Below, in pieces: positions 2,080-33,053 of a stretch of DNA of 35,249 nucleotides. A program made the translations under genes and the position numbers. The stretch's first letter is position 1; every line of letters starts with the position of its first letter. Source of the DNA: Sedimentisphaerales bacterium (GTDB lineage Bacteria > Planctomycetota > Phycisphaerae > Sedimentisphaerales > Anaerobacaceae); NCBI GenBank assembly GCA_028282745.1, contig JANQHJ010000013.1, positions 1 to 35,249 of the forward strand, given 5' to 3'. The notes beneath the pieces were generated by a model. It did not search any database. It was not told where the DNA came from and worked only from the letters and a program-made list of their open reading frames with translations.

Positions 2080-2099
2080 CTTGCTATCTCCGGGCTGTT

Positions 2100-6142: not shown

Positions 6143-6383
6143 AATAACATTATCTGTTGACGGCAGGCAAGTTACTGTCGATAAGGGAACGGTCGTAGCA
6201 GTCGCTATCGCCAAAGCCGGCGTCGAACGCTTCCGTAATTCTTTTTCCGGCCAAAGCCGAGGCCCTCTTTGTGGGATGGGGCTTTGCTTCGAGTGCCGGG
6301 TTACTATCAACGATCAGCCGCACTGTCGAAGCTGCCAAACGATATGCCAACAGGGCATGGAGGTTAAGACCACTGATGAGTAA
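6132..6383 (+). CDS. Small [2Fe-2S] ferredoxin-like subunit of the dehydrogenase
   Basis: An 83-residue protein of the Fer2_4 type. The cysteine cluster reads PLCGMGLCFECRV with further cysteines in CRSCQTIC, the usual plant-type [2Fe-2S] ligand set (C-x4-C-x2-C-xn-C). In HcnABC-like and sarcosine-oxidase-like complexes this subunit passes electrons between the flavin subunits. The ATG at 6132 has GGAGA 9 bases upstream and overlaps the end of the preceding gene by 11 bases; a TTG at 6117 in the same frame is less likely. It overlaps the next gene by 8 bases. Gene order catalytic-ferredoxin-FAD/NAD with overlaps strongly supports one complex. Confidence 0.88.
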   Translation: MPNEITLSVDGRQVTVDKGTVVAVAIAKAGVERFRNSFSGQSRGPLCGMGLCFECRVTINDQPHCRSCQTICQQGMEVKTTDE

Positions 6384-7650: not shown

Positions 7651-7674
7651 CCATACAAAACAGAAAGGATTATC

Positions 7675-9177
7675 ATGGGTTTAGAACTAAAAAAAGAAGC
7701 TATAAATGCCGCAGTTTCTAATCTTCAGCTTCGCACTAAAGCTTTTATAAATGGAAAGTCGGTTAATTCGGTTAGCGGAGAAACTTTTGCGACCGTAAAT
7801 CCAGCTAATGGAAAAACGTTTGCAGAAATTGCAAGTTGCGATGAAAAAGACGTTGAACTCGCGGTAAAAGCTGCTCGTAAATCATTTGAAAGCGGCTGCT
7901 GGTCGAAAATGCCACCCGCCGAACGTAAAAAGATAATATTTAAATTCTGCGATCTGATGGAAGAGCATGAGGCTGAGTTAGCACTTTTAGACTGCCTTGA
8001 CGCCGGTAAGCCTATTTTCGATTGTGTAACGATCGATGCCCCGGAAACAATAGAGTGCATCCGCTGGCACGCTGAAGCTGGTGATAAGCTGCTCGACACT
8101 ATTTCGCCTACCGGCAGCAGTAATCTAAGCCTGATCGTTCGTGAGCCTATGGGTGTAGTTGGGATTATCGTACCGTGGAACTTCCCTGCCCAGATGACCG
8201 CGTGGAAGATCGGCCCAGCTTTGGCTACCGGTAACAGTATCATTCTAAAACCCGCAAAGCTCACTTCATTAAGCGCTATTCTCATGGCGGAACTCGCAGC
8301 CGAAGCTGGAATTCCAGATGGCGTTTTCAATGTCCTGCCTGGCCCAGGGAGTACAGTCGGCAAAGCATTAGGAATGCACATGAATGTCAACATGGTTGCC
8401 TTTACCGGCTCGACCGAAGTAGGCAGAACACTTCTGGGCTATTCATCTCAATCGAATCTCAAAAGAATCATTCTCGAATTAGGCGGTAAGAGCCCGCAGG
8501 TTGTAATGGCTGATGCCGATCTTGATATAACTGCTGAAAATGCCGTCAGCGCCGCTTTCTGGAACATGGGCGAAAACTGCAGCTGCGGCTCGCGATTAAT
8601 CGTTCATAAATCTGTAAAAGACGAACTGGTTAAAAAGATGGTCAAAATATTAAAGACCTGGCCAGTTGGCGATCCGCTTGATCCTGACACTCGATTCGGC
8701 CCAATGGTGGAAGAACCGCATATGGAGAAGGTTCTCAGTTATATCGAAGCTGGTAAAGCAGAAGGCGCTGAGCTGGTAATGGGCGGCAATAGAGTACTCG
8801 AAGAAACCGGGGGTTATTTTATCGAACCTACCATTTTCGATGAATGCAATAACAAAATGAAAATCGCTGCCGAGGAAATATTCGGGCCTGTGCTTTCGGT
8901 TATTCCATTCGAAACAGAAGAAGAGGCTGTTGCTATCGCTAACGACACAGAGTACGGCCTGGCATCATCTCTATATACTCGCAACGTTAACGCCGCTCAT
9001 AGAATTGCTCGTGCAATAAGAGCTGGTACAGTTTCGGTTAACTGTTTCTCCGAAGGTGATATGGGCGCCCCGTTCGGCGGCTTTAAGGAATCCGGCTTCT
9101 TTGGCAGAGACAAATCGATCTACGCTCACTATCAGTACACTGAAATGAAAGCAATATGGATGAATCTTGAGGATTAA
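7675..9177 (+). CDS. Aldehyde dehydrogenase, likely alpha-ketoglutarate semialdehyde dehydrogenase
   Basis: A 500-residue NAD(P)-dependent aldehyde dehydrogenase. Landmarks: VPWNFPAQMTAWK, the nucleotide-binding GSTEVG, the general base E268 in LELGGKSPQV, and the catalytic C302 in NMGENCSCGSR, numbered exactly as in canonical ALDHs. The C-terminal PFGGFKESGFFGRD is also typical. By sequence alone the substrate is open. In this operon it should oxidise 2-oxoglutarate semialdehyde, the product of the adjacent deaminase, to 2-oxoglutarate, the last step of hydroxyproline breakdown. AGAAAGGA precedes the ATG by 6 bases. The 24-base gap to the upstream gene and 5-base gap to the next keep it within the operon. 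Confidence 0.9.
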   Translation: MGLELKKEAINAAVSNLQLRTKAFINGKSVNSVSGETFATVNPANGKTFAEIASCDEKDVELAVKAARKSFESGCWSKMPPAERKKIIFKFCDLMEEHEAELALLDCLDAGKPIFDCVTIDAPETIECIRWHAEAGDKLLDTISPTGSSNLSLIVREPMGVVGIIVPWNFPAQMTAWKIGPALATGNSIILKPAKLTSLSAILMAELAAEAGIPDGVFNVLPGPGSTVGKALGMHMNVNMVAFTGSTEVGRTLLGYSSQSNLKRIILELGGKSPQVVMADADLDITAENAVSAAFWNMGENCSCGSRLIVHKSVKDELVKKMVKILKTWPVGDPLDPDTRFGPMVEEPHMEKVLSYIEAGKAEGAELVMGGNRVLEETGGYFIEPTIFDECNNKMKIAAEEIFGPVLSVIPFETEEEAVAIANDTEYGLASSLYTRNVNAAHRIARAIRAGTVSVNCFSEGDMGAPFGGFKESGFFGRDKSIYAHYQYTEMKAIWMNLED

Positions 9178-9182
9178 ACTAT

Positions 9183-10079
9183 ATGACTGCAAAAGAGACC
9201 GGCCAGACTTTTAAAGGCGTTTTTGTCGCGATGATTACACCGATGACATCGGATCAGGAAGTTGACTATGATCAGCTGGAAAAATTTGCCGACTATTTGA
9301 TCAATTCCGGCGTACATGGATTGATACCATTGGGCAGTACCGGAGAATTTTACGCTCTTAGTGATTCAGAGCGGGCTGAAGTTCTTAAAGTTGTTCTCAA
9401 TACAGCTGACGGACGTGTCCCCGTGCTGGCAGGAACCAACGCCGCATCAACAAGTAGAGTTGTTCAGTTTTCTAAACAGGCTGAAATAGCTGGTGCCAAT
9501 GGGCTACTTATCGCACCGCCTTATTATTCTTTACCTACACTTGACGAGTTGTACGAACACTTTAACCAAATCAACAACAACATTGGCATCCCGATCATGC
9601 TCTACAATTACCCCGGCCGAACCGGCGTCGATATGACAGTTGATTTCGTTGAACACCTTAGTGGTTTAAGCAATGTCAAATACGTCAAGGAGAGCACTGG
9701 CGAGATAACGCGAATTGGTGAACTTGTCCGTAGATGCGGCGACAGGCTTACGGTTTTCTGCGGTGCCGATACTATCTCCCTGGAGAGCTTTTTAATGGGC
9801 GCAACCGGATGGGTAGCCGGCATTGCTAATGTCCTGCCGAAAGAGCACGTCAAACTTTATGAGTTTGCTGTTGAACAACAAGATTACAAAGCCGCCCAGG
9901 AATTTTACGTCAAAATTCTGCCGGCCCTCGGTCACATAGAGAACAGCGGTAAATACACCCAGTTCGTCAAAGCAGGCTGTACTGTCACGGGCCACCACGT
10001 CGGTCCGCCGAGAATGCCTTTATTGCCTGTCACAAAAGAAGAAATGAAGGGAATTGAAGAAGCATTAAAACAACTGTGA
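9183..10079 (+). CDS. DapA-family lyase, likely delta1-pyrroline-4-hydroxy-2-carboxylate deaminase
   Basis: A 298-residue TIM-barrel enzyme of the dihydrodipicolinate synthase/N-acetylneuraminate lyase family. Visible residues are the GSTGEFYAL loop, the catalytic Tyr141 in MLYNYPGRTG, and the Schiff-base Lys169 in KYVKEST. Family members include true DHDPS, sugar-acid aldolases and the hydroxyproline-route deaminase. Its place directly after the semialdehyde dehydrogenase, 5 bases away with GAGGA 9 bases before its ATG, supports the deaminase, which turns pyrroline-4-hydroxy-2-carboxylate into 2-oxoglutarate semialdehyde and ammonia. A role in lysine synthesis is unlikely given the neighbours. 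Confidence 0.87.
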   Translation: MTAKETGQTFKGVFVAMITPMTSDQEVDYDQLEKFADYLINSGVHGLIPLGSTGEFYALSDSERAEVLKVVLNTADGRVPVLAGTNAASTSRVVQFSKQAEIAGANGLLIAPPYYSLPTLDELYEHFNQINNNIGIPIMLYNYPGRTGVDMTVDFVEHLSGLSNVKYVKESTGEITRIGELVRRCGDRLTVFCGADTISLESFLMGATGWVAGIANVLPKEHVKLYEFAVEQQDYKAAQEFYVKILPALGHIENSGKYTQFVKAGCTVTGHHVGPPRMPLLPVTKEEMKGIEEALKQL

Positions 10080-10101: not shown

Positions 10102-11658
10102 ATGAGGCGATATTTCATTTACTTGCTGGTTTTCTTGACTTGTCTAAACTTCTGCCTAAAAGCAACAGCATCTACAGTCCAAGTCACAGCTGCCCCAAAA
10201 GAATTAGGCTTTGATCCGTTCTATAAAAAGTATCTTGACTGTAATGGAATTCATGTTATCAGCTCGGAACAAGTCAGCGACAAGGCATTTTACAGGCTAA
10301 AAGAACTTCTGGACAAAATGCTTGAGAACCGCCCCGACCTCAGGAAAACATTGGTAAAAGAAAAGTTCAAGTATATTATCATAGGCCAGCACGAACAGGT
10401 CACGGATATCCCGGACTATGCACACATGAAGCCTAAAGATTTCTGGAACCTGCGAGCCAGAGGATTTGGCGGACGAACAACAAGCTGCGGTGAAGAAAAT
10501 TTACTTTCGCTGCCCGGCGATAGATATGATGATGAAAGCATTTTTATACATGAATTGGCACATGGTATTCACTCGCCGGGGCTAAAAACATGTGATCCAA
10601 ACTTCCAGACCAGATTAGATGCTCTCTATAAAAAAGCGATGGATAAAGGCTTGTACAAAAATGATTACGCCTCGACGAATTCGACAGAGTACTGGGCTGA
10701 GGCAGTACAAGCTTTTTTCAATTGCGACCGCGAGAACAACTGGAACCACAACCATGTGAACACTCGCAAAGAACTGATGGAATACCATCCTGACGTCGCG
10801 AATTTTGTTAAGGAAATATTCCGCATCACAGAGGAAAATGACTGGCGATACAAGCCGCTCAAAAACTTGCCTTATGTAGAATCTACACCAAAGAAACTCA
10901 ATCCTCATGGAATGTTCCCTAAATATATAAGGTGCTTCGAACTTTCGATCTTAGGCACGAAAAACGTTCCAGATGAAGCAATGTTGTGTGCAGCAAGTAC
11001 TATTCGAAATATGTTTCGCTACCGTTACGACATCTTAAGAACCCTGGTAGAAGCTAATGTAACCCTCGTAATCTATGAAGATAAGGATATGCCATTACCT
11101 AAAGATATATCTATGGGAATATCAACCGGCTTTTTTATTAAGGAGGATAAAGGCAGGGCACTGATCCAGATTCCAAATAAATTTCGGTTTGGCATACCTG
11201 CTTCAGACATATTGAATAACGATGATGAGTCCACTTCAAGCAAATTAATCCATGACTTTGCCCTGACTGCTTATATTTATACCGGCTTTCGTGAAGTCAT
11301 CCCCAATTTTGCCAACCGTAAAAACATTCAACAATTTGAAAAAGGCCTGAAAAGAATGGACCTAAGGTTCGACAAGAGAATGAACACCCTTTATAATTCA
11401 GCAATAGTCAAAGACCTATGGAAAACAACTCCAGCTTCTAAAAATCGCTTTGAATATTTCGCACAGGGTGTAAAGTCTTTTTTCAACGCAAACAATATTA
11501 TTGTAGCTAACGAACAATCTGTAAATAACCGAGAGCAATTAATCCATTATGACCAGGATTTAGCATTATTGATAGCAGATATATTCAAACACCCTTATCG
11601 AAACGACTGGCGATATAGATCATGTGCCTCGGCAAGTAGGCATGCTAACCCCGACTAA
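10102..11658 (+). CDS. Secreted metallopeptidase-like protein with a second, degenerate copy of the domain
   Basis: A 518-residue exported protein: signal peptide at residues 1-24 (IYLLVFLTCLNFCLKATA), then two homologous halves of about 240 residues. Half 1 has a zinc-peptidase motif HELAH (150-154) and a downstream glutamate helix EYWAEAVQAFFN (from 196), a gluzincin layout resembling ATLF/M34 domains (anthrax lethal factor, Pro-Pro endopeptidases). Half 2 has the matching segments as HDFAL (384-388) and EYFAQGVKSFFN (from 451), so catalytic residues are lost while the scaffold and the closing NDWRY remain. It follows the deaminase by 22 bases with AGGAG before the ATG, so it is probably in the hydroxyproline operon. 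Peptidase activity and substrate are inferred; family assignment is by motif only. Confidence 0.75.
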   Translation: MRRYFIYLLVFLTCLNFCLKATASTVQVTAAPKELGFDPFYKKYLDCNGIHVISSEQVSDKAFYRLKELLDKMLENRPDLRKTLVKEKFKYIIIGQHEQVTDIPDYAHMKPKDFWNLRARGFGGRTTSCGEENLLSLPGDRYDDESIFIHELAHGIHSPGLKTCDPNFQTRLDALYKKAMDKGLYKNDYASTNSTEYWAEAVQAFFNCDRENNWNHNHVNTRKELMEYHPDVANFVKEIFRITEENDWRYKPLKNLPYVESTPKKLNPHGMFPKYIRCFELSILGTKNVPDEAMLCAASTIRNMFRYRYDILRTLVEANVTLVIYEDKDMPLPKDISMGISTGFFIKEDKGRALIQIPNKFRFGIPASDILNNDDESTSSKLIHDFALTAYIYTGFREVIPNFANRKNIQQFEKGLKRMDLRFDKRMNTLYNSAIVKDLWKTTPASKNRFEYFAQGVKSFFNANNIIVANEQSVNNREQLIHYDQDLALLIADIFKHPYRNDWRYRSCASASRHANPD

Positions 11659-11673
11659 TACTGTTGAATAAAA

Positions 11674-11968
11674 CTATTTCACAGGGCCTCTCATATTTGC
11701 CATCCATGCCGGCCATGCATTTCCATTTAACAGCTTTTGCCTTAATTTGTATTGTCTATGCCATTTAAGATCCCACAGGTATTTCAGTCCTACTTTTCTA
11801 ACAGAACCGTCCAGGAAACAAATATTAATATTGGCATTATGGCGATCAATTAACCTGCATAGCATATGCCTTTGCTTTATTAAGAACAGGCACTAAAATA
11901 GCCCTCAGCAGAGCAATAACTGATATTACCACTAAAAGCTCGATCAATGTAAAACCTCTTTTTAAGGA
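11674..11968 (-). pseudogene. Decayed H-X9-DG prepilin, internal deletion and frame change
   Basis: Two fragments of a prepilin like the neighbouring intact gene. Fragment 1 (11846-11968) reads LKRGFTLIELLVVISVIALL...LNKAKAYAMQVN and then stops; it has no start codon and lies in frame directly behind the TAG of the upstream gene. Fragment 2, in another frame down to 11674, reads DRHNANINICFLDGS (the H-X9-DG motif), then VGLKYLWDLKW and a tail ending GPVK. About 190 residues between the two are missing compared with the intact 270-residue neighbour. Sequence divergence from the neighbour suggests an old tandem duplication followed by decay. Confidence 0.8.
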
Positions 11969-12781
11969 CTATTTTGGATATTTACTCAACCATGGGCCCC
12001 AATTATTTTGCTTCCTGTATTTATCAGTATCATAAGATTTATTCCATTTTAAACCACAAAGTTCCTTAAGCCCTACATCTCGAGCGCTGCCATCCAAGAA
12101 AACAACTTCAGTTACTCCACCATGCCTGTCAAAACAGAAATTCCTTAGGCGGTCTTTATTATTCCCGGATTTCATACAATTTTCAGTGGGCAATCTATCA
12201 TCATCTTCTACATGTCCGCCTATCCAGGTGCCATCCGCAATTACAGGTATCCTGTCACTGCGTTTAACCGCTGTCGTACGCCAGGCATTTTTCTTGACAT
12301 TGAAACCTTGAATTGTGTCTTTCCTTGGATTCGACACCCATCGGTTATAAGCATAGCTCCCATACTCTCCACGAGCCTCTAACCATTTAGAATGATCTTC
12401 AGCTATTTTCCAAGCATAGTTAGGTTGCCAATGCTGAGCTCGCGGATCACCTGTCGGAATAATTTTTTTTGCCGCCGCACAAAGCCTCATTTCATTGACG
12501 TCGTCATGGTATTTTTTCAAGGCTGAAATCCATATACCCATATCATCCTCACTAAAGCCCTCCCAGCCAATAATAAGGGAATCATTATTATTAGCAGAAT
12601 ACCCATTAATAGTAAGAATCCATTGGTGCAAATTAGCTTTACATACTGTTTTCTGGGCATATTTTTTAGCTTTACCCAACACTGGAACCAGTATTGCCAT
12701 TAGCAATGCAATAACTGAAATAACCACTAAGAGTTCAATTAACGTAAATCCTCTTTTTTCCTTTCGCAATTTCCCGTGCAT
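11969..12781 (-). CDS. Type II/IV prepilin-like protein with H-X9-DG domain
   Basis: A 270-residue protein. The N-terminus has a class-III signal: KEKRG followed by FTLIELLVVISVIALLMAIL, with the cleavage Gly and Glu at position +5. Near the C-terminus is DRHGGVTEVVFLDGSA, an exact H-x9-DG motif, then VGLKELCGLKW. Such proteins are highly multiplied in Planctomycetota and are presumed pseudopilins handled by prepilin peptidase; their individual roles are mostly unknown. AAGGAAG lies about 12 bases upstream of the ATG. A terminator at 12972-13001 separates it from the upstream PEP-CTERM gene, so it probably has its own promoter in 12782-12970. A decayed paralogue follows directly. Confidence 0.87.
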   Translation of the reverse strand: MHGKLRKEKRGFTLIELLVVISVIALLMAILVPVLGKAKKYAQKTVCKANLHQWILTINGYSANNNDSLIIGWEGFSEDDMGIWISALKKYHDDVNEMRLCAAAKKIIPTGDPRAQHWQPNYAWKIAEDHSKWLEARGEYGSYAYNRWVSNPRKDTIQGFNVKKNAWRTTAVKRSDRIPVIADGTWIGGHVEDDDRLPTENCMKSGNNKDRLRNFCFDRHGGVTEVVFLDGSARDVGLKELCGLKWNKSYDTDKYRKQNNWGPWLSKYPK

Positions 12782-13014: not shown

Positions 13015-13998
13015 TTACCTTCTTTTTCTTCTAAACAGTAAACCGCCGAGACCGAGCAATGCGATTGTTGCAGGTTCTGGAACGACCAGCGATAAAGTAT
13101 CAGTCGTATCATTAGCATCTAACTGGAACTTATAACCGTTCACAACTGTTGTGGTATCCTGAACAAGAACACCATCAATGCTGAACATGCCCTGAATCAG
13201 TTTTGCTGCAAGGTTTTTGACTGTATCAGTATTGTCTGTATGGACTAACTGTGCAGCACCAGCACCTTCTGTCGTGGTAAAGTTAATGCGATTACTAACT
13301 TGAGAATCATTTGGATCCGGCTGAGATGCTGTTCTTATAGCATTACTGTTACTTAACGTAATTGTTCCACTTTCGAATGTAAATAAAGTGGTCAAAGAAC
13401 CAGCACTACCAAACTTAATTGATGGGGCTGTTAGTGTAGAATTATCCTTCATTGTAAAGCTGGTGCCAGACAACATTTCCAGACCATTTGAAAAAGCACC
13501 AGAATTAGCCAGTGTGATCGACGCAGAATCTGACATTACAATAGAACCATCAGCTTCCATTGTAAGGGCATACTTATTATTTTTCCCTTTATTTGTCAAA
13601 TCTAAGGCAGCAGTACTGGACAGGGTCATCACTGCGGTGTTAGAATCACCAATGAGCCCCACTTTCATAGCAACGGCATAGTTACCTGTTTCAACAATAC
13701 TAAGTGTTCCAGCTGCCTGTGTCCAGATACCGGCACTCATCTTGGTCAGGCCACCTGTTCCACTGGCATCAGTCTTGCTGATATTACCCGTTGAAGCACC
13801 AAGGGTAATATCAAAACCTTGATAGTTAATATAGCCGACCATATCATCATCTGTTCCATTTGAATCAGCTACACCATTTCTGGTCCAGTTAAGGTCGGAC
13901 CAGTCACCGTCACCACCCTGCCACACCAGGGTGGTTGCTGATTGCGAAACAGCTGTTACTGCAAACACCATAAGAAAAATTAAAAGAATTCTTCTCAT
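13015..13998 (-). CDS. PEP-CTERM exported surface protein
   Basis: A 327-residue exported protein. Signal peptide at residues 1-20 (MRRILLIFLMVFAVTAVSQS). The body (about 22-300) is Thr/Ser/Asn-rich with repeated short beta strands (MTLSSTAALDLTNKG, SIVMSDSASITLANSG, FTFESGTITLSNSNAIR), suggesting a beta-solenoid. The last 22 residues are a PEP-CTERM sorting signal: VPEP, a hydrophobic stretch ATIALLGLGGLLF, then RRKRR. Such proteins are thought to be processed by exosortase and sent to the surface or matrix. The body matches the N-terminal module of the protein encoded at 16256-18226 (shared WQGG-DW-DLNWTRNGV start). AGGAGG lies 8 bases before the ATG. No exosortase gene is in the window. 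Confidence 0.9.
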   Translation of the reverse strand: MRRILLIFLMVFAVTAVSQSATTLVWQGGDGDWSDLNWTRNGVADSNGTDDDMVGYINYQGFDITLGASTGNISKTDASGTGGLTKMSAGIWTQAAGTLSIVETGNYAVAMKVGLIGDSNTAVMTLSSTAALDLTNKGKNNKYALTMEADGSIVMSDSASITLANSGAFSNGLEMLSGTSFTMKDNSTLTAPSIKFGSAGSLTTLFTFESGTITLSNSNAIRTASQPDPNDSQVSNRINFTTTEGAGAAQLVHTDNTDTVKNLAAKLIQGMFSIDGVLVQDTTTVVNGYKFQLDANDTTDTLSLVVPEPATIALLGLGGLLFRRKRR

Positions 13999-14115
13999 AA
14001 TAAGCCTCCTCTTCTAAAAATAATAAAAAATCTCAAACTCTCACATAAGCTTTCATCTCGATCATATTTTGGCCTTCACTATTTTTTGCTTCTAAGACCA
14101 CGAGCCTTATAAGCA

Positions 14116-14141
14116 GCCTTGCCTCTTGAATGAGGCAAGGC
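14116..14141 (-). terminator. Stem-loop between LamG-protein and PEP-CTERM genes
   Basis: A perfect 10-bp stem GCCTTGCCTC/GAGGCAAGGC with a 6-base loop, 43 bases after the stop of the upstream LamG gene. There is no T-run after the stem on the minus strand, so it may be a weak or factor-dependent terminator, or an mRNA 3'-end or processing hairpin that sets different levels for the two genes. Confidence 0.5.
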
Positions 14142-14184
14142 CGATCGAACATTAAAAGCATTCAAAACATTATCAAAGAACCTG

Positions 14185-16209
14185 CTACTGACAATGACTT
14201 TGAGGGAATAACCCGCAATCAAGCCAGTAATCAATCCAAACATCGAAGTCATAAAGATCTACTCTACAATCGGGTACATCAATACCACCCGGGCCAGCCA
14301 AGTCATATTTACTAGCGTAATCACCCACACAATCGTTTTCGCCGGTGACTGCATTATATATGTCATACACAGCCAGCTTATCGAGCGGATAATTCCAAAC
14401 CTGAACATCGTCAACGCTACCTGTAAATGACAGACCTGGAGACTGTGATTTCTGGACACCGACTATAAAGGCATCGAGCTTTGTTTTAGCTTCAGTTTTA
14501 CTATTCACCTCTATGCCATTGAAATAAGTGGTGGTGTTTGTTGCATCGCAGGTAACTGTAAGAAGCACCCAGTCAGAACTATAATCACCTAAAAAGATAT
14601 TGGTGGAATCCGATTTATATCTATAACCAGCATTTACATCAGAATTAAGGGCTATATTAAAACCGTCAGGCCCGGTAGCAAATATACCGGTAAATTCGCC
14701 CTGGTTAGGATCGGGATTCTTTGCCCAAAGGCTTACTGTCCAACCTGCGTCCCAATTCTCGTTCGGGTCCAAATCGGTATAAACCCAATCGTTATTGTCA
14801 CCGACAAAATTAATCGCATTAGGGCCAACATTGCCGGCAACATAAGTTGGGCTGCCATTCGAACTGTCCAGATCATAATTACCATTTGAGTCACAGGGAT
14901 CACCGTCGAATTTCCAATGAGCCATTTGTCTCTTGATTGTCAGTGAAGCAGAAGCGGAATTGACATCACCGCCGGTAACACTGATCGTACATACATAATC
15001 ACCTTCATCACTGATATCAACATTGGTTAAACTCAGTGTTGATTTGTAAAGATTGTTGTCCAGGGGTGTTATAGTATCATCAGTTGGATGTGCAGAACCG
15101 TTAAATTCCCAAACAACTTCAGTTGTGATAGGTGTTGCAGCACTCCAGAAAATACAATTGAAATCAGCCGATTCACCCGGGAATTTTAGGACGCTTTCCG
15201 GATCCTCGTCAACATTAGGACTGTTCGTATCAGCGAGCCCTAAGGTCATCTGCCCTTGATTACTGTCGGCAGTCATAAAGAAGTATCTGCCATGGATAGG
15301 CTGATCCTCTAAAGCAGCATTTATATCAGCAATATTACCATATGGGCCTGCTTTTTCGTTGTAATCAGGGATAGCACTAAAATCAAGCTTAATGCCATCA
15401 ATCCCCATCATCTCAAGCTTTTGTGGGAGCTCTTTGCCCGGTTGATCATTGGTTGATGCGGTCAAAATTGCTGCACCAGCTGAACCTGTCCAGTTAAATA
15501 ATACATTTGAGAAGGAAATCGATGACCTGATTGAATTGTTTGAATCTAAAGTAATTGTACCACTCTCAAATGTAAAATTGGAGTCGCTGGCAATGCTGCC
15601 ATCCAAACGAATATAACTATCAGCTCCACTGTTAGAAAGAATTGTAGAATTACCAGTCACCTTAAACCGTGCACCATTTTCTATTTCTATACAATCATCC
15701 TGACTGGAAGAATTATCTGAAATATCAATAGTAGAGCCGCCGTCAACTAAAATGCTGCCATTCTGCAAATATATGGTTCTCGTAGCAGCATTAAGCGAAC
15801 TAACCACCAAAGTTGCTCCATTATCAAGAATAAGATTCGCATCCTCAGCGCCATCTTCACCATCAACATTAAAACCAAGGACAAAACCTGCCATATTCTC
15901 GGTTGTTGTAGGTATAATCTCTAATCTCGAATTATCAACCGTCAATGTACCACCTTCGATACGCAGGCGAACCTGGCTGGTTACGTAATCGAGATCTCCA
16001 TTATCCTTGATTAAAAAGTTATCACCAGAATGATCATTAGTGTTATTGTCAGCTATCAAATCATTTGGGTATTGGTTCGTTAAAGCGCCAACTGTCCATG
16101 TAGGGCTATTCCAGTCAGCCTCATTAACCTCCTGCCAAACGTAATCCGCTGCATGTGAAGCCGCAGTGAAGATAATTAAGAAAAGCATTAAAATTAATAT
16201 TCTTTTCAT
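14185..16209 (-). CDS. Secreted modular protein: beta-rich module, Ig-like, LamG, dockerin-like end
   Basis: A 674-residue exported protein. Signal peptide about residues 1-20 (MKRILILMLFLIIFTAASHA). A Ser/Thr/Asn-rich beta module runs to about 310 and shares FTFESGTI and the following asparagine/arginine pattern with its two neighbours. An Ig-like domain at about 330-420 shows the Cys, Trp and DEGDYVC pattern. A LamG/concanavalin-like domain at about 425-615 starts AHWKFDGD and ends FTGSVDDVQVWNYPL. The C-terminus (DCRVDLYDFDVWIDYW, then paired cysteines) resembles the dockerin-like end common in planctomycete surface proteins. The ATG at 16209 has AAAGGAG 9 bases upstream; a second in-frame ATG at 16227 precedes that site and is rejected. 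Binding target unknown. Confidence 0.85.
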   Translation of the reverse strand: MKRILILMLFLIIFTAASHAADYVWQEVNEADWNSPTWTVGALTNQYPNDLIADNNTNDHSGDNFLIKDNGDLDYVTSQVRLRIEGGTLTVDNSRLEIIPTTTENMAGFVLGFNVDGEDGAEDANLILDNGATLVVSSLNAATRTIYLQNGSILVDGGSTIDISDNSSSQDDCIEIENGARFKVTGNSTILSNSGADSYIRLDGSIASDSNFTFESGTITLDSNNSIRSSISFSNVLFNWTGSAGAAILTASTNDQPGKELPQKLEMMGIDGIKLDFSAIPDYNEKAGPYGNIADINAALEDQPIHGRYFFMTADSNQGQMTLGLADTNSPNVDEDPESVLKFPGESADFNCIFWSAATPITTEVVWEFNGSAHPTDDTITPLDNNLYKSTLSLTNVDISDEGDYVCTISVTGGDVNSASASLTIKRQMAHWKFDGDPCDSNGNYDLDSSNGSPTYVAGNVGPNAINFVGDNNDWVYTDLDPNENWDAGWTVSLWAKNPDPNQGEFTGIFATGPDGFNIALNSDVNAGYRYKSDSTNIFLGDYSSDWVLLTVTCDATNTTTYFNGIEVNSKTEAKTKLDAFIVGVQKSQSPGLSFTGSVDDVQVWNYPLDKLAVYDIYNAVTGENDCVGDYASKYDLAGPGGIDVPDCRVDLYDFDVWIDYWLDCGLFPQSHCQ

Positions 16210-16255
16210 TATTGCCACTCCTTTCATTAAAACAAAGGATTCATTTAGTTAATTG

Positions 16256-18226
16256 TTAACAACCGCCCGGGTATAATCCACAGTCGAACCACACCTCAGC
16301 CAAGTCCGCAAAGTCAACAAAGTTGACTACGCAATCATCATTTGTATCAAGAAGACTATTGTACAACTCGTCTTTGCAGATAGGTGTCCCGCTAATATTG
16401 TAATATTCGAGGAAAATATCATCCTCACTTCGCCCATAGTTGTATAGCTTGACATCATCAACACTACCTTGGAAACGGAAGTTAGTATTGTCCTTTCGGT
16501 TAGTACCTATGGCAAGGGAAGCCACTAAAGTTTCACTCGCTGAAGTTGCGTGTGTACTTACTAACTTGCCATTGAAATAAATTGAGGTTTCATCTCCATC
16601 GCTTGAGATCCCAATGAATGACCATACATTTGGGTAGTCATCGGAATCAACTATTTGTCCGATGTCATAATTGAAAGAATTACCATGTTGCCTGTAGGTA
16701 CCACCGCCATTGCAGTCAATCTGGAATCCATTTTCAACACCGAAGCTGAAAACGCTTTTGTATTGGCCTTGCTCTGGTTCAGGTGTCTGGACCCAAAGAG
16801 TAACTGTATAACCCTGCGACCAATCTTCTTCAACCGCAAAAGTTGTACGGCCGTATTCGTCAACACCATTTAATGTAATCGCCTGACTTATCAGACCTGT
16901 GGAGTAATTGCTGCTATCAACATTACACGGATCCAAGTCATAGTTCCCATTGGAATCATTAAGATTTCCATCCAGTTTCCAGTGTGCCACTTGTCTCTTG
17001 AGTAAGACCCGTGCTTCAACTGAATTGACTTCACGAGCTACGTTTTCCAGGTGGCAATAATAGTACCCATCATGGCTCAAATTAACGTCTGTTAGAGATA
17101 ACGTCGCAATACCTACTCCAGATGTGGCATTGTAATCATATGTGCCAGCAGCATAATAAGCACCGTCTTTATGCCACTCTACAACTGTTGGAGCCGATGC
17201 TGATTCGAATCCACAAACCAGGTTATAATCACATACATCCGGAACTGCGGTTGAAAAGTCATCTGGATTATCAATCACAAACAAGTAATCCGGTTCACTT
17301 GAGCCTGCTTCAAGAGTTAAAGTGTCAGTACCAGCAGTTTCATTAGTGGTGATCAGAAGCGAATAACCATTGACTTGCTCATAAACATTGGTTACGACTA
17401 CATCGTCAATACAAAAGTAACCGAAGCCTGCTTTACCATCCAATCTATTACTGGCATCTCCTGTGATATCGGTATGGACTAATGCAGCTCCACCTGCACC
17501 GCTACTTGTTTTAAAGTTAATACGGTTACTGGGCGTATTAGGTTCCGGATAACCTGCAGTTCTTAAAGCATTTTGACCAGTAACAACGATAGTGCCAGAC
17601 TCAAAGGTAAAGAAAGTACTCCTGGAACCGGCACTAATGAATCTGATATCAGGGGTGTTAAGGTCGGCACTACCTTTTATAGTAATATTGCAGTCGGCTC
17701 CAATATCAAATCCATTAGAATTATTTTCAGAATTTATCAAGGTGATCGAAGCTGAACCGCTTAGTGTTAAGCTCGTATTAACATCCATGGTTATAGTATG
17801 CTTGTTGTTCCTGCCCTTATTGGTTAAAACCCATGCAGCTGTTCCGGAAAGATTTATATCTACCGGGCCACCACCAGTAGCATTAGTTCTCACCGCGACA
17901 GAGGAGTTTCCTGATTCGTTAATAATAAAGTTCCCATCTGACTGTACCCATGTACAACCTGATTCGAACTTTATTAACCCATTATCTCCATTCACGTCGC
18001 TCTTATAGAGATTGGTCATATTCGGTTCGAATGTAAAATTGGTATCTGTAAAAAGAATATAACCAACAAAGTCATCATCCAAAGCATTCGAATCCGGGAC
18101 TCCATTTCTGGTCCAGTTCAAATCCTTCCAGTCGCCTCCGCCTCCCTGCCAGTGCAGAGTTGTCGCCGCGTGCGAGGTAGCGATGAAAGTTACTATAAGA
18201 AGAAATACAATTAATTTCTTTCCCAT
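16256..18226 (-). CDS. Secreted modular protein: shared surface module, Ig-like, LamG, dockerin-like end
   Basis: A 656-residue exported protein. Signal peptide at about 1-20 (MGKKLIVFLLIVTFIATSHA). Residues about 22-290 are homologous along their whole length to the body of the PEP-CTERM protein at 13015-13998 (WQGGGGDWKDLNWTRNGV; ALTNKGRNNKH-like segment; FTFESGTI). An Ig-like segment follows (about 300-390), then LamG (about 395-600; AHWKLDGN to FQGSVDDVKLYNYG) and a dockerin-like tail CVVNFVDFADLAEVWFDCG. ATG 18226 has AAAGGAGAAGG just upstream; the ATG at 18244 precedes that site. It is the first secreted gene after the sigma/FecR pair, separated by a 619-base leader, and is followed after 46 bases by a related gene. 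Confidence 0.85.
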   Translation of the reverse strand: MGKKLIVFLLIVTFIATSHAATTLHWQGGGGDWKDLNWTRNGVPDSNALDDDFVGYILFTDTNFTFEPNMTNLYKSDVNGDNGLIKFESGCTWVQSDGNFIINESGNSSVAVRTNATGGGPVDINLSGTAAWVLTNKGRNNKHTITMDVNTSLTLSGSASITLINSENNSNGFDIGADCNITIKGSADLNTPDIRFISAGSRSTFFTFESGTIVVTGQNALRTAGYPEPNTPSNRINFKTSSGAGGAALVHTDITGDASNRLDGKAGFGYFCIDDVVVTNVYEQVNGYSLLITTNETAGTDTLTLEAGSSEPDYLFVIDNPDDFSTAVPDVCDYNLVCGFESASAPTVVEWHKDGAYYAAGTYDYNATSGVGIATLSLTDVNLSHDGYYYCHLENVAREVNSVEARVLLKRQVAHWKLDGNLNDSNGNYDLDPCNVDSSNYSTGLISQAITLNGVDEYGRTTFAVEEDWSQGYTVTLWVQTPEPEQGQYKSVFSFGVENGFQIDCNGGGTYRQHGNSFNYDIGQIVDSDDYPNVWSFIGISSDGDETSIYFNGKLVSTHATSASETLVASLAIGTNRKDNTNFRFQGSVDDVKLYNYGRSEDDIFLEYYNISGTPICKDELYNSLLDTNDDCVVNFVDFADLAEVWFDCGLYPGGC

Positions 18227-18845
18227 AACACCTTCTCCTTTCATTTCAATAATTACAATTTAAAATTTATTTACAGATTCAATGAACTACGAAAAATACA
18301 TAATTTACAATAATAATCCCGCTTACATTTTTCAGGGCAATTACAGCCTAAAATCCCTCCTGTGAAATACATATCAAATACTTATAGACCACCAACTTCC
18401 AACTTATGTCATCCACACCTCCTTTTTTAGATATTGACAGGAAATATATTAAGTTTACTCCCATAAACAATTATTACTATGTATATTTTATCCGCATATT
18501 AGATGCCGAAACCCACGCTTGATGATTATAAAACTTTGTTTGTTGTAATGCCCGGCCAGAGCAGCGATCCTAATGGTCAAGAACGCTGCTCTTTGACCAA
18601 ACATTCCCGTTGTTGAAATTTCCTTCACATCTTTGCGAATTCGTTACAGCAATTATCTTATTACCAATCTTCCTAAAATAACCAATAAGTTTTAAAAAAG
18701 CACTCATCACTACAAGAGGACAAAATCACCCATACTTTTAACTCCTCCTGAGTTTATTAAAACTTTTTGCTGACGATCACTAACCAATCACCCACTAATC
18801 CTTTTAGATACATACCTTCTAAAAATTCCTGTTTTTACGACATTA
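18227..18845 (-). other. Long leader between LamG-FecR gene and secreted-protein genes
   Basis: No gene is supported in 619 bases. On the minus strand it contains, in order: an AGGAGGAGT site (18741-18749) in front of a 7-codon frame MGDFVLL (18733-18710); two overlapping, mutually exclusive hairpins (18558-18599); an AAAAAAGGAGGT site (about 18418-18429) in front of ATG-ACA-stop; and finally the true ribosome binding site of the LamG gene. This could be a regulated 5' leader or the scar of lost genes. A 45-codon frame at 18570-18707 has no good ribosome binding site and is not called. Confidence 0.45.
18558..18599. promoter_or_regulatory. Two mutually exclusive hairpins in the leader
   Basis: AGAGCAGCG (18558-18566) pairs with CGCTGCTCT (18584-18592), and TGGTCAA (18574-18580) pairs with TTGACCA (18593-18599). 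The arms interleave, so both stems cannot form fully together: the zero-base junction between arms is too short for a full pseudoknot. Such an arrangement can act as a switch in an RNA leader. No T-run follows. Confidence 0.4.
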
Positions 18846-20555
18846 TTAATAACTTAAACGTTCACCATTTTTTATTGCGACATCATATAATTGCTTAATC
18901 TGATCTGAAGTAAGGTCGTAATCGAAGATCGCAGTTTCATCAATCATCCCTACAAAAGATTGACTATGTGTTTGTCCTGGAGGACTGCCTATGTATATTT
19001 TGTCATTGTATAAGGATGTATTTTGTTGTGATATTTTTAAATGAGTACTTGGAAACGAGGTTTCAAGATTACCGTTCACATACATCCTTCTAACATGGTC
19101 AGTTTTCCAGCCTGAGGTCCAGGCGACCATGTACCATTTATTTTTCTCTGCGATTGTTTGAGATGTTATTGCTAACTTTGAGAGTTTGGGCTTAAGATAG
19201 TTGTGGTGTTGCACTACAAATTTGCCATCTTTGTTAATAAAAAAGCGACGGGTATTTCTTAGCTCTCCATCCTTGCATTTAGCTGTTACAATAATATCCC
19301 CAGATACATTTTCATTAATTTTTACCCAAGTGATATATGTATATGGTCTTTTAGTATTGATCTGCTGAAATACTTCATCAATAACTTCAACATACTGACC
19401 CCGATTCACAATTAGTGCATTGTTAATTTGGTCAGGCCGGAATAAAGGCCCCTGTGTGAATTGCGGTTCTTGCTTACAGGTTCCAATTCCATATTGACCG
19501 TCGATCGAGTTGGCGAGTGCCTTTGAGCGAGAATGATCGTACCGCCAATAGTATAATGGTTTTTCAGCAAGAACCGCTAATTCATATTCAGACGGAATCT
19601 GTTTTTTGAAGAGTGTCTGACTGAAAGATATTTTTTCAATTGTATCATCACTTGAATTCACTCTGATAGCCTGGTTTTCCGAAACATCCTCACTTTGCCA
19701 ATGTCCCGCTTGATTATTTTGAGACAAAAGTTTGACCTTGCCTTCATATACATATAATTCACTTTCACCTTCATCAACATCTATACCAAATTCGGTACCC
19801 AAATCTACAATTCGAGCATAAGATGTATTTACTGTAAACCCAACTGATGCCTTATTAATCTTGGCGTAAATTTTACCCTTTTCAATAAATATCGATCCCG
19901 TGGATTCACAGACAAATTTAGCAGGCCCCTCAATAACTGTTTTGGCGCCATTATCAAATGTAACTTCAGCATATCCCTCTAAAAGATGAAGTAAACTATA
20001 ACCGGATAATCGTTGTCCCTCATCAACCTGAGAATTCCCAGCCCAAACTGCACGCGCCGTATCTGTTAATGTCGCAACGGGTCTGAATTCATCATTTCTG
20101 CCCGTCCTGTTCATTATTAAAGCAGTCAAGAATAATACTATCACTGCTGCTGCTGCCAATGCTGATATTATCGGCAGCTTATAATTTCTTGATTTGTGCT
20201 TTATTTCAGGCTGTGATATTAAACGTTCTGCGCCCTGTCTCATTTTAATATCAACATCTACAGCAGAAGCAGTATCCTCTGCTTCGGCCAGGGCTTCCCA
20301 GAGTTCTGGACTATCTACAGGCACAAGAGATATCCCGCCGTTGATTTCAGTAAACAAATCACCTTGGCTTATCTCCAAAACTTGCCTTAGTTCCGAATGA
20401 ACCAGCAAGTACTCAATATAATATCTCCGTGCATCAGGATCATTTTTTAACAATTCATCAAGTTTATTTGCTAACTGCTCATTTGCATCACCTTCAACGG
20501 CCTGCTCTATTAGCAAGTAAAATTCACGAATTTGTTGTTTGTTATCAAAGCCCAT
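18846..20555 (-). CDS. FecR-like anti-sigma/sensor protein with LamG C-terminus
   Basis: A 569-residue membrane protein and likely partner of the ECF sigma factor upstream. The cytoplasmic N-terminus (about 1-122) is acidic and helical (LLIEQAVEGDANEQLANKLD; DPDARRYYIEYLLVHSEL). A membrane segment lies near 125-147 (LPIISALAAAAVIVLFLTAL). The FecR domain is at about 168-272 (GYAEVTFDNGAKTVIEGPAK; IVDLGTEFGIDV). The last ~230 residues form a LamG/concanavalin-like domain (YTYITWVKIN; WYMVAWTSGW; FVGMIDETAIFDYDLTSDQI). Its ATG (20553-20555) overlaps the sigma stop by one base (TAATG), so translation is coupled. It has the same plan as the FecR protein at 400-2079 but with a different outer domain. 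Confidence 0.87.
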   Translation of the reverse strand: MGFDNKQQIREFYLLIEQAVEGDANEQLANKLDELLKNDPDARRYYIEYLLVHSELRQVLEISQGDLFTEINGGISLVPVDSPELWEALAEAEDTASAVDVDIKMRQGAERLISQPEIKHKSRNYKLPIISALAAAAVIVLFLTALIMNRTGRNDEFRPVATLTDTARAVWAGNSQVDEGQRLSGYSLLHLLEGYAEVTFDNGAKTVIEGPAKFVCESTGSIFIEKGKIYAKINKASVGFTVNTSYARIVDLGTEFGIDVDEGESELYVYEGKVKLLSQNNQAGHWQSEDVSENQAIRVNSSDDTIEKISFSQTLFKKQIPSEYELAVLAEKPLYYWRYDHSRSKALANSIDGQYGIGTCKQEPQFTQGPLFRPDQINNALIVNRGQYVEVIDEVFQQINTKRPYTYITWVKINENVSGDIIVTAKCKDGELRNTRRFFINKDGKFVVQHHNYLKPKLSKLAITSQTIAEKNKWYMVAWTSGWKTDHVRRMYVNGNLETSFPSTHLKISQQNTSLYNDKIYIGSPPGQTHSQSFVGMIDETAIFDYDLTSDQIKQLYDVAIKNGERLSY

Positions 20556-21112
20556 TATATGCGATTTAATCTCATCTTTCTGTTAATACAATTCAGCAAT
20601 ATTGATTTAATCCGCGATGTATTCCTATAAACAACGTGGATTGATGTTCCTATTCTTGCGGCAATATATTTGGCAGCTAATCCATAAGAAAAACGCATCT
20701 CAAGAAGTTTCCTGTCCTGCTTGGTTAGTTTTTGCATACACTCTTTCAGCGCATTAAGGCGGTCTTTTGATTCGTTCATTATTTTCTTGCTTTCAACCTC
20801 AATAAGCTCAAGAGTCTGATTGCTCAAAGAGATGTTCTTGCCTTTGCGGGTTTTGCGAAAGTCCAGAATCCTGTATTTTGCTATAGCGAACGCCCATGCA
20901 AGGAAATCAGTGCCAGGTTTGAACTCATCAAATTTCTTCCACATCATTCTGGAAGTTTCCTGCATTACATCGTCGGTATCTTGGTTATTATATAATTGGC
21001 TCTGAACAAAAGCCCCAATTCGGTAATAATTGGCAGACAGAAGCTTCACAAACAGCTCTGTTTTGGATTCCTCATCAACTTCTTTATAGCTATTGTTCAT
21101 ATCCTCAGACAT
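20555..21112 (-). CDS. ECF RNA polymerase sigma factor
   Basis: A 185-residue ECF sigma factor. Region 2: NQDTDDVMQETSRMMWKKFDEF, then TDFLAWAFAIAKYRILDFRK. Region 4: LTKQDRKLLEMRFSYGLAAK, then helix-turn-helix IAARIGTSIHVVYRNTSRIK. It matches the Rhodopirellula/Verrucomicrobium sigma type and is related to the factor at 2100-2636, though clearly diverged. I list the ATG at 21112 (MSEDMNNSY); alternatives in the same frame are a GTG at 21121 and an ATG at 21100, and none has a strong ribosome binding site. The gene overlaps the FecR-LamG gene by one base. Likely targets are the secreted genes downstream, but no promoter test is possible here. Confidence 0.88.
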   Translation of the reverse strand: MSEDMNNSYKEVDEESKTELFVKLLSANYYRIGAFVQSQLYNNQDTDDVMQETSRMMWKKFDEFKPGTDFLAWAFAIAKYRILDFRKTRKGKNISLSNQTLELIEVESKKIMNESKDRLNALKECMQKLTKQDRKLLEMRFSYGLAAKYIAARIGTSIHVVYRNTSRIKSILLNCINRKMRLNRI

Positions 21113-21685
21113 AGCAAACACTTAAAACAGTTCCATACAATTCATAAAGATACACAGCTTTGTATATGTAAAGGCCAATATTTGTTGTTTTCTGCGCAAA
21201 ATTTTCGATTATTTACAAAAAAAATTCTTACTTATTTGTAATGGGCTTAAATTAGCCTTAAAAAAGTGGAACAGCATGCGATGTTCTTTATAAATCTAAG
21301 AAAACACGCTCAAAAAAAAAGCTTAAATGAGTACCAAGTATTTATTAGATATCGGCGACATACTTAGGTGTAACTGAATAATTACCCTGGAATTGTACCT
21401 CTTTCGGGAAAATGCAAAAGAATGCTGCTGCCTCAGTTAAGGAGTCAGGATTCCCTGCCAGGGATAGACAGCTGTAAGTGATTTCTTATAAATGAGTAAC
21501 AACAGTCTCACTTGAAACTGATTAGAGCCTGCTTATGCCTGATACCATCTAATAGCGCTTTTATATTATGACTGTAACTTTCAGTGTGTAATTGAGAAAA
21601 AAATCACCGGTTAAACAGGAAATATCTCCCTAAGGCGTGTTCAATGATCGCCAAATGAGGTGCAATTCGAAAATGCTATTTCTGA
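21113..21685. other. Intergenic region between pseudopilin cluster end and second ECF sigma gene
   Basis: No gene is supported in 573 bases. It must contain the 3' end of the pilus-type transcript and the promoter of the sigma gene, both minus strand. Only short structures are visible: GAACA-GCATGCGA-TGTTC near 21269-21287 and a 5-bp TCCCT/AGGGA stem near 21454-21466. No clear terminator with a T-run was found. Confidence 0.35.
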
Positions 21686-22180
21686 TTATTGGATTACCCG
21701 CCTGGCTAAAGCCGCCCCGGCAAGTGTTTGTTCGACATCTCCAGCTGAAACTGTCATCGAGATACGAACATTTTTAACGTCCCCGCTTGGAGTGCTGTTA
21801 TCTTTTTTAAACGATACCGCAGTTACATTATCACATAAGGTATAATCAGCTGCTGCTCCATAATCATATAGCATAAGTTTATCGTTGGCGTTATCATAAT
21901 AAAACCTGACTGTACTGCCGTCGCTGCAAAGCACAATACACTCTTGCTCATTAGCTATATTATTGGGGTCCACCAGTCCTGTCCGAATCTGGCTGGTCAT
22001 CCTGATCAATGCCTGTCGAGCCGAATTGACGGCAATAAATGTATCTTCATTTGCTTTATAGTTCATTATTGAAGCACTAAGTGCAGTAGCCAAAGCTGCC
22101 ATAAGCATCGCAAGAATTGCCAGGGACATTAATAACTCTGCTATAGTAAAACCGCTTGATTTTAATCTGGTCTGACACAT
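21686..22180 (-). CDS. Minor pseudopilin, PilW/GspJ-like
   Basis: A 164-residue prepilin-like protein. The class-III signal is RLKSSG followed by FTIAELLMSLAILAMLMAAL, with Gly before the cleavage site and Glu at +5. The following helix leads into NSARQALIRMTSQIRTG, the pattern of GspJ/PilW minor pseudopilins, and the C-terminal half is beta-rich (VRFYYDNANDKLMLYDYG; VKNVRISMTVSAGD). It is the last gene of the pilus-type cluster, 11 bases after the PilV/GspI-like gene. Minor pseudopilins prime or cap the pseudopilus. The exact orthology (PilW versus GspJ) cannot be fixed by eye. Confidence 0.75.
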   Translation of the reverse strand: MCQTRLKSSGFTIAELLMSLAILAMLMAALATALSASIMNYKANEDTFIAVNSARQALIRMTSQIRTGLVDPNNIANEQECIVLCSDGSTVRFYYDNANDKLMLYDYGAAADYTLCDNVTAVSFKKDNSTPSGDVKNVRISMTVSAGDVEQTLAGAALARRVIQ

Positions 22181-22191
22181 TTTATTGATAC

Positions 22192-22689
22192 CTAATAATT
22201 AGAACGGATCCACATCGCACGGGCAAATTCCTCACCGCCTAAAGTCACTGTTATGGTAATCCTCACAAAATTACTCGAGTAATCCCCTACAACCTGTTGT
22301 AGATCTGACTGACTAACATTTTCAACTACAACATTTTGAGTATAAGCCGCGAATTCATTAAGTGGCTCTCGATCGGCTCCGATAGGCGGATTAAATGTTG
22401 TATCGTCGAAATCGTCAATGTCATCATATAAAGCCAATGACAATTCTTCAGGCCCAAATGTGGTCTTACCATCCTCTGGGTCGATAGTTTCAAGAGTATC
22501 GACAAGCTCTCTGATCTGTTCGGCAAGAAATTCCGCTGTAGATATTTCTAACCCGACAGCATTAATCTTTGTGAACGAGCAGTTGGCTGCGATCAACGCG
22601 GTCACCGCCATACCTATAAGTATGATCGCGAACAAAGACTCAAGCAGTGTAAAGCCTTTTCTATTCTTTCGCCCCATTGACACGAACAT
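22192..22689 (-). CDS. Minor pseudopilin, PilV/GspI-like
   Basis: A 165-residue prepilin-like protein. The signal is GRKNRKG followed by FTLLESLFAIILIGMAVTAL, with Glu at +5. LLESLFAIILIG is the form usual in PilV/GspI minor pseudopilins. The C-terminus ends in beta strands (FVRITITVTLGGEEFARAMW). ATG 22689 has GAGG 7 bases upstream; an internal ATG at 22677 is possible. It sits 28 bases after pilC and 11 bases before the GspJ-like gene, in the same minus-strand operon. Confidence 0.77.
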   Translation of the reverse strand: MFVSMGRKNRKGFTLLESLFAIILIGMAVTALIAANCSFTKINAVGLEISTAEFLAEQIRELVDTLETIDPEDGKTTFGPEELSLALYDDIDDFDDTTFNPPIGADREPLNEFAAYTQNVVVENVSQSDLQQVVGDYSSNFVRITITVTLGGEEFARAMWIRSNY

Positions 22690-22717
22690 ATCAAACCTCG
22701 TTTTAAGAAAAGCCTTA

Positions 22718-23911: not shown

Positions 23912-23950
23912 TTGACACCCCCACGATGCTATACTTTAACCACGGGCTTT

Positions 23951-25039: not shown

Positions 25040-25356
25040 AATTAAATTTCCTTAAGGTTCACCCATTCCACATTTTAGTTCAAAATACCGAGCTACTTAA
25101 AATATAAGAAATAACGGTTTCGATCCCTAATTATTCCAAGTCCATACCGTCAAATACTCATCATTTATCGGTTATTTAATATCATCCCTTAGCTATAAGC
25201 CCGATTCATGCAAATATATCTCGCATATCACGTCCCACCGTGCACCCATAGTCCGATATCATAGAAATGTTTTTAAAGGTGTGTCTCAACTACCATGCAA
25301 CTCTGCGATCGCCTGCTCCTAAGCTCTAATAGATTAGTCAAAAAAAGAATGGCCGC
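25040..25356 (-). other. Gap inside the pilus cluster
   Basis: No gene is supported in 317 bases between the PilP/GspC-like gene and pilT. I see no strong hairpin with a T-run. It is the only long gap in the cluster, so pilT-pilC and the pseudopilins may have their own promoter here. Confidence 0.35.
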
Positions 25357-26013: not shown

Positions 26014-26060
26014 ATTGAGTCTCCAATTCTATTTGAGTTTAAAAATATACTACTCATCGG

Positions 26061-26594: not shown

Positions 26595-26637
26595 ATCCAT
26601 TTCCCCCTGTTTTGATTCTTTATTCCAAACACATAGC

Positions 26638-27369: not shown

Positions 27370-27388
27370 TTCTCGGTCCCCTAATTAT

Positions 27389-33049: not shown

Positions 33050-33053
33050 TTTC

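What the first reader, a model, noticed from the sequence alone, without database searches (positions are those of the whole stretch)
13015..18226. One surface module carried with two different C-terminal fates
The protein at 16256-18226 and the one at 13015-13998 share about 270 residues (WQGG-GDW-DLNWTRNGV start, LTNKG-NNK, FTFESGTI). One continues into Ig-like, LamG and a dockerin-like end; the other ends in a PEP-CTERM signal. The middle gene carries a diverged module. This suggests building surface structures from a common solenoid attached by different routes.
Basis: seen in the sequence. Interest (0 to 1): 0.55.

Follow-up and report, generated by a model that had tools for sequence, protein, structure and literature searches.

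The report
One binding module, two surface tails
A planctomycete makes the same beta-helix surface module as a short protein with a cell-surface sorting tag and as long proteins with a dockerin-like end, and the same twin arrangement recurs with other binding modules at several loci in related bacteria.

Summary
Gene A (16256-18244) and gene C (13015-13998) share a module at 48% identity over 308 residues; B's copy is diverged, 27%. C ends in PEP-CTERM; A and B continue into Ig, LamG and one degenerate dockerin-like loop (by eye). The module is a predicted right-handed beta-helix. Contig C25 repeats the trio beside sulfatases. On the module tree PEP-tailed copies are not one clade (p-AU 0.002). 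In another family, one stretch (L102) holds ECF sigma, FecR-LamG, module protein, PEP-CTERM protein, sulfatases and prepilin. Two tails reach beyond this module: in PEP-chosen regions of four genomes 9 of 23 neighbouring dockerin-like/PEP-CTERM pairs share a domain, against 3 of 762 pairs from different regions; without this genome 6 of 16 against 0 of 625. Most cases come from one genome. Best reading: an ECF/FecR-linked glycan-binding locus that displays one copy and exports another. Function is inferred.

The parts
16256..18244 (-). Gene A (662 aa): N-terminal signal-like stretch, beta-helix module (about residues 26-312), Ig-like, LamG, one dockerin-like half-repeat ending ...DCGLYPGGC
   Evidence: signal and tail by eye
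17309..18169 (-). Module copy in A
14185..16227 (-). Gene B (680 aa): diverged module, I-set Ig, LamG, degenerate dockerin-like end ...DCGLFPQSHCQ
15232..16152 (-). Diverged module copy in B; groups with the C25 B' copy (100/99)
13015..13998 (-). Gene C (327 aa): N-terminal signal-like stretch, module, then PEP-CTERM directly after the last module strand
13081..13941 (-). Module copy in C; beta-helix model residues 21-307
13021..13083 (-). PEP-CTERM sorting signal of C
   Evidence: (29.1 bits)
11969..12781 (-). Prepilin-like protein with N_methyl head and an H-x9-DG motif (motif read by eye, family name recalled)
18846..20555 (-). FecR-LamG protein, putative membrane anti-sigma/sensor; 32% over 562 aa to the L102 FecR-LamG
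20555..21121 (-). ECF sigma factor (TIGR02989 136 bits, cut-off 124.55)

Best explanation
The window holds an exoprotein locus beside an ECF-sigma/FecR pair in which one ligand-binding beta-helix module is made in two forms. The short form (C) is exported by a signal peptide and sorted by the genome's exosortase through PEP-CTERM, so it should sit at the cell surface or in the exopolysaccharide. The long forms (A and B) carry the module plus Ig and LamG domains and a dockerin-like calcium loop; with no cohesin found, the loop is more likely a structural or secretion end-piece than a cellulosomal plug, and these forms are exported, perhaps with help from the adjacent prepilin-like protein. The probable ligand is a (sulfated) polysaccharide, so displayed and released copies would bind the same polymer and hold substrate between the cell and the secreted proteins. 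SHOWN in sequence: the shared module, the two tails, repetition at a second locus, repeated tail change on the module tree, recurring company of ECF/FecR, sulfatase and prepilin genes. INFERRED: glycan binding, localisation, control of the locus by this sigma factor, the role of the prepilin.
For: Shared module and tails. Second locus C25 with PEP copy, B' and A' beside prepilin and sulfatases. L102 carries ECF, FecR-LamG, a module-Ig-LamG protein with a dockerin-like end (31% over 760 aa to B), a LamG-PEP-CTERM protein, sulfatases and prepilin in one stretch; its sulfatase is 64% identical to one at C25. In G203, of 6 module genes: C36 is joined to a sulfatase, C39 is followed by a sulfatase, C18 lies beside ECF, FecR and sulfatase, C2 beside ECF and FecR; for C31 and C23 no such neighbour was seen. 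Exosortase present. Beta-helix fold. In other twin pairs the shared domain is LamG or, weakly, F5/8 type C, both often carbohydrate-binding (that property is established knowledge).
Against: No binding or localisation data. The fold match is to a very common fold and gives no function; Foldseek alone gave nothing at E<=0.001. None of the 22 window ORFs scanned with Pfam is a sulfatase, so the sulfate link comes from the paralogous and related loci. FecR and A are about 600 bp apart (18846 and 18244) and no promoter was tested, so control by this sigma factor is a guess. Cohesin absence rests on one draft genome and one Pfam model.
Confidence: 0.5

Rival explanations
1. Ordinary tandem duplication and domain shuffling: the copies share a module only because they are neighbours by duplication, and the two tails have no functional relation.
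For: Neighbouring genes are in general more alike than distant ones here: N-N pairs 19 of 1820 in the same region vs 51 of 24320 elsewhere, P-P 14 of 145 vs 18 of 1415, D-D 4 of 7 vs 3 of 100. The C25 A' and D proteins share a 64% identical C-terminal body over 560 aa with different N-termini, so shuffling does occur. In four own-genome cassettes (C33, C35, C57, C107) the PEP and dockerin-like partners share no module, nor do the PEP proteins of L065, L067, L070, L076 and L079 with their neighbours.
Against: Neighbours with different tails (D-P) are homologous more often than PEP-PEP neighbours: 9 of 23 vs 14 of 145 (Fisher P 0.0009), and without the discovery genome 6 of 16 vs 13 of 135 (P 0.006; pairs are not independent). 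The fewest tail changes on the best module tree are 3. The pattern recurs with unrelated modules.
Confidence: 0.3
2. Homotypic assembly: the anchored copy is a docking base on which the secreted long copies stack through the shared module, building a surface layer or fibre.
For: The shared module is a predicted solenoid, and twins are encoded near each other.
Against: Several twin modules are LamG or weakly F5/8 type C, globular lectin-like folds. No interface was modelled.
Confidence: 0.15
3. A cohesin-dockerin scaffold of the kind proposed as a 'planctosome' in freshwater Planctomycetes (PMC6461901): dockerin-ended proteins plug into a cohesin scaffold.
For: 43 Dockerin_1 matches at E<=1 in the genome, some over nearly the whole profile (best 34 bits). 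Passages of PMC6461901 describe such a model.
Against: No cohesin above cut-off, and the tails of A and B are half-repeats not called by Pfam.
Confidence: 0.05

Closest known systems
PEP-CTERM/exosortase sorting (Haft et al. 2006, PMC1569441, passages seen)
   Same: C carries a scoring PEP-CTERM tail; an exosortase is in the genome
   Different: Here the tailed protein is a short copy of a domain also used by neighbours without the tail
Families whose members carry alternative C-terminal sorting tags (Haft and co-workers 2011, PMC3237569, passages seen)
   Same: One protein family with different C-terminal signals; PEP-CTERM as a suffix
   Different: The passages describe sorting tags of different systems in members of one family; here PEP-CTERM and a dockerin-like end lie side by side in one locus
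Putative 'planctosome' (PMC6461901, passages seen)
   Same: Planctomycete dockerin-bearing exoproteins outside cellulose degradation
   Different: That model has cohesins; none passes the cut-off here
Right-handed beta-helix surface proteins (autotransporter passengers, SRRP adhesins)
   Same: Predicted fold; Z 8.5-13.6 in the 50 rows shown
   Different: No Pfam autotransporter domain in A, B or C at E<=0.1; sequence identity 5-18% in those rows

Membership tests
PEP-CTERM/exosortase substrate (gene C) | C-terminal PEP motif, hydrophobic helix, basic end, over the Pfam cut-off | tested here: met
   25.5 bits vs 20.7
PEP-CTERM/exosortase substrate (gene C) | Exosortase in the same genome | tested here: met
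   PF09721 E 2.7e-57
PEP-CTERM/exosortase substrate (gene C) | Cleavage and surface delivery | not testable with these tools
   needs experiment
Type I dockerin (genes A, B) | Two calcium-binding repeats, Pfam Dockerin_1 | tested here: not met
   no Dockerin_1 match at E<=0.1; one half-repeat by eye
Cellulosome-type scaffold | Cohesin in the genome | tested here: not met
   best 16.7 bits vs cut-off 24.1, E 0.011; draft genome
Right-handed beta-helix | Fold | tested here: met
   Predicted model only; Z up to 13.6, residues 21-307; Foldseek alone not significant
Autotransporter/PATR proteins | PATR repeats | tested here: inconclusive
   none in A, B or C at E<=0.1; one PATR in a relative that carries the module (L024, E 2.3e-7)
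H-X9-DG prepilin-like protein (gene 11969-12781) | N_methyl head plus H-x9-DG motif | tested here: met
   N_methyl 33.8 bits; motif by eye; family name recalled and not among the 18 NCBIfam rows at E<=0.1
ECF sigma/FecR pair | Adjacent ECF sigma and FecR-domain genes | tested here: met

The most novel reading that the evidence does not exclude
Phycisphaerae use a general twin-tail surface unit: a PEP-CTERM-tagged copy of a binding module displayed on the cell, a dockerin-like-ended copy exported, and a dedicated H-X9-DG prepilin-like protein that serves export of the dockerin-ended cargo, with the module (beta-helix, LamG, discoidin-like) swapped between loci.
Probability: 0.3. Interest if true: 0.8.

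Novelty: new variant of a known kind. Interest (0 to 1): 0.6.

Why it matters
The planctomycete genomes searched carry many PEP-CTERM, dockerin-like and prepilin-like proteins, mostly without known purpose. A locus type that pairs the first two through a shared domain and often has a prepilin nearby makes a direct test possible: what each tail does, using natural twin proteins that differ in the tail.

Tried and rejected
Tried without result: the search for related loci with the 3-row alignment in genome contigs found no relative; with 6 rows, one. PDB sequence search with the module: none at E<=1. Module in whole genomes, own included: 1 of 99, 1 of 89, 2 of 392, 3 of 397; these sets overlap, and searches scored at most 6 candidates per genome, so copies can be missed. 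The full-length model of A is poor beyond residue 312 (mean pLDDT 54) and was not searched. A conserved 'W..C..C' end on dockerin-like proteins was considered as a tag: 3 own proteins by regular expression plus B by eye, 1 in relatives, too few to claim. One fetched stretch (L104) was not examined further. Considered and rejected: chance similarity, cellulosome. Literature: no paper in the library holds PEP-CTERM, dockerin and Planctomycetes or PEP-CTERM and dockerin; H-X9-DG gave one unrelated paper; other searches were seen as listings, and passages were seen of four papers. No paper was read whole.

Limits of the counts; 42 of the 43 dockerin rows were typed in (the row with an internal stop was dropped), down to E about 0.8; at that threshold 9 of 14 control genomes also ring, so single hits are weak and only the positional contrast counts. 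The cassette idea came from the same genome, so the P-values are after the fact; the genome was treated as one line, contig ends ignored; 40 regions from 8 of 17 genomes, every listed row of those 8 with a frame of 230 aa or more except one left out by oversight (G061:C95); the tool lists only the best 150 rows. One search was a first pass with a stricter pilin pattern (34 pilins; immediate neighbours: upstream dockerin-like 10, downstream 4) and was replaced; dockerin, PEP and pilin classes come from my regular expressions, not Pfam; window B, C25 A' and the L107 partner, dockerin-like by eye, fall in class N there. PEP genes already fetched around pilins were not. Ten of the 17 PEP genes with a twin together come from one genome, G062 (G000 3, G061 2, G769 1, G060 1). 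One search mixed pilin-chosen and PEP-chosen regions and L102 (chosen by a module hit), so its 11 of 36 is not an unbiased rate. Pairs are not independent, so Fisher values are rough.

Full report
CHECK. The three genes lie on the minus strand of contig C4 of a 2.57 Mb draft genome. A and C share 308 residues at 48% identity, E 6e-83. B's module is 27% identical to C's, E 5e-12, and A and B align over nearly their whole length. C ends in PEP-CTERM (25.5 bits). A and B have Ig and LamG domains, A's Ig below the cut-off; their dockerin-like ends are not scored by Pfam and rest on reading the sequence.

THE MODULE. The genome holds six copies: A, B, C and three on contig C25 (with the 3-row alignment; the same six with 6 rows). 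C25 repeats the set: a 337 aa module-PEP-CTERM reading frame open at the contig edge, a B-like 886 aa protein and an 855 aa A-like protein, with a prepilin and sulfatases between and after them (one sulfatase scored by Pfam, three more by BLASTP). The model of C (pLDDT 75.8, pTM 0.78) matches solved beta-helices with Z up to 13.6, although Foldseek alone gave nothing at E<=0.001, and a common fold says little on function. The module is rare: own genome only in 89 family genomes, 2 of 392 in the phylum, 3 of 397 in the class with an 11-row alignment.

TAILS CHANGE. In G203 the module occurs as a 384 aa PEP-CTERM protein, in a 1731 aa protein with a PATR repeat, a dockerin-like stretch (22.4 bits, just under the cut-off of 22.9) and a PEP-CTERM-like end by eye, and in an ORF joined to a sulfatase. 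At C25 the A' protein has a C-terminal body 64% identical over 560 aa to a neighbour without the module. With six rows, the two PEP copies as one clade are rejected at p-AU 0.024; the two forks that bear on it have support 84/97 and 50/47. With 12 rows, 8 of them labelled PEP-only or dockerin-like, the fewest tail changes on the best tree are 3, and one clade of the three PEP-only copies is rejected at p-AU 0.002; the C25 pair has 90/89, B is a long branch and three forks are open.

COMPANY. L102, in another family of the same order, has in one direction: prepilin, ECF sigma, FecR-LamG, a LamG-Ig-LamG protein and a module-Ig-LamG protein (both dockerin-like ends by eye), a LamG-PEP-CTERM protein, another dockerin-like-ended protein, and sulfatases (one sulfatase by Pfam, two by BLASTP). 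B is 31% identical over 760 aa to its module protein, the window FecR 32% over 562, the ECF 32% over 177, and a C25 sulfatase 64% over 511. This suggests that the window and C25 loci descend from one locus type. In G203 four of six module genes have ECF/FecR or sulfatase neighbours.

PREPILIN. In the own genome, of 26 N_methyl proteins with frames of at least 230 aa, 8 have a Dockerin_1 match within 4 kb upstream on the same strand (expected 0.73, binomial P 4e-7), none downstream or on the other strand; 6 have PEP-CTERM within 6 kb upstream (expected 0.5, P 9e-6), none downstream or on the other strand. Of 19 shorter ones none has the dockerin match, and one, the 40 aa remnant in this window, has the PEP match. 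These P-values are after the fact. In 40 regions of eight relatives with 48 such pilins the contrast is weaker: dockerin-like upstream 22 vs downstream 11 (opposite strand 7), PEP 10 vs 4 (opposite 2), both 8 vs 1. Both upstream: G062 4 of 17, G005 2 of 10, G060 1 of 4, G061 1 of 3, and none in G001 (7), G063 (2), G010 (2) and G065 (3).

TWINS. Among 102 PEP-CTERM proteins in regions chosen for PEP-CTERM hits (G000, G062, G060, G005), 9 have a non-PEP homologue in the same region: 12 of 739 same-region pairs vs 4 of 11007 pairs from different regions of the same genome (odds ratio 45, P 5e-12). Without G000, where the idea arose: 8 of 533 vs 0 of 7937. That alone could be tandem duplication, so I split by class: D-P 9 of 23 vs 3 of 762; P-P 14 of 145 vs 18 of 1415; D-D 4 of 7 vs 3 of 100; D-N 5 of 149 vs 5 of 3091; N-P 4 of 716 vs 2 of 10245; N-N 19 of 1820 vs 51 of 24320. 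D-P exceeds P-P within regions (P 0.0009; without G000 6 of 16 vs 13 of 135, P 0.006). Per genome, twins were 3 of 18 in G000, 5 of 44 in G062, 1 of 29 in G060 and 0 of 11 in G005, so the generality is uneven. Of the 9 twin regions 7 have a long prepilin, against 8 of 39 other regions with a PEP protein (P 0.002). The shared domains include LamG (L058, L090, L102, L118) and weakly F5/8 type C (L108, below cut-off in the PEP protein); others are unassigned. In the own cassettes at C33, C35, C57 and C107 the partners share nothing, nor do those of L065, L067, L070, L076 and L079.

MECHANISM AND LIMITS. I commit to a glycan-binding locus with displayed and exported copies (0.5). No step of localisation, binding or regulation is shown. 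Duplication with tail shuffling and no functional pairing stays a serious rival (0.3).

PRIOR WORK. Alternative C-terminal tags within one family are known (PMC3237569, passages), as are the PEP-CTERM system (PMC1569441, passages) and a cohesin-dockerin proposal in Planctomycetes (PMC6461901, passages). PMC12078418 (passages) mentions degradation of sulfated polysaccharides in the phylum. In the library searched no paper holds both PEP-CTERM and dockerin; papers outside it are not excluded.

Noticed in passing
window 11660-11970: Broken second prepilin copy directly downstream of the intact one: the N_methyl head and an H-x9-DG-like tail lie in different frames; the tail resembles the C25 prepilin by eye.
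   Followed up: partly
window 4077-10079: Proline-racemase family, FAD oxidoreductases, aldehyde dehydrogenase and DHDPS-family genes near a PAS-AraC regulator: looks like 4-hydroxyproline catabolism (pathway inferred).
   Followed up: partly
window 10102-11658: Protein with an HELAH motif; weak matches below cut-off to PF07737 (17.9 bits, cut-off 27.4) and M90, probably a secreted metallopeptidase.
   Followed up: no
window 400-2636: Second ECF sigma/FecR pair, the FecR protein without a LamG match (FecR; ECF by BLASTP).
   Followed up: partly
window 21686-28324: Type IV pilus/type II secretion genes (PilM, PilN, PilO, T2SSE, T2SSF, pseudopilins) next to the cassette.
   Followed up: partly
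window 28758-35149: RND efflux transporter with a TetR-family regulator; the two genes between look like its partners by eye.
   Followed up: no
L032 10585-14295: ORF joining sulfatase, PEP-CTERM, then module and a second PEP-CTERM with no stop between: true fusion or assembly error.
   Followed up: no
L024 10211-12400: ORF that looks Cas9-like by eye, near the module gene.
   Followed up: no
L045 8470-9693, L047 9408-10865, window A and B: Some dockerin-like proteins end in W-x-C...C (B by eye).
   Followed up: partly
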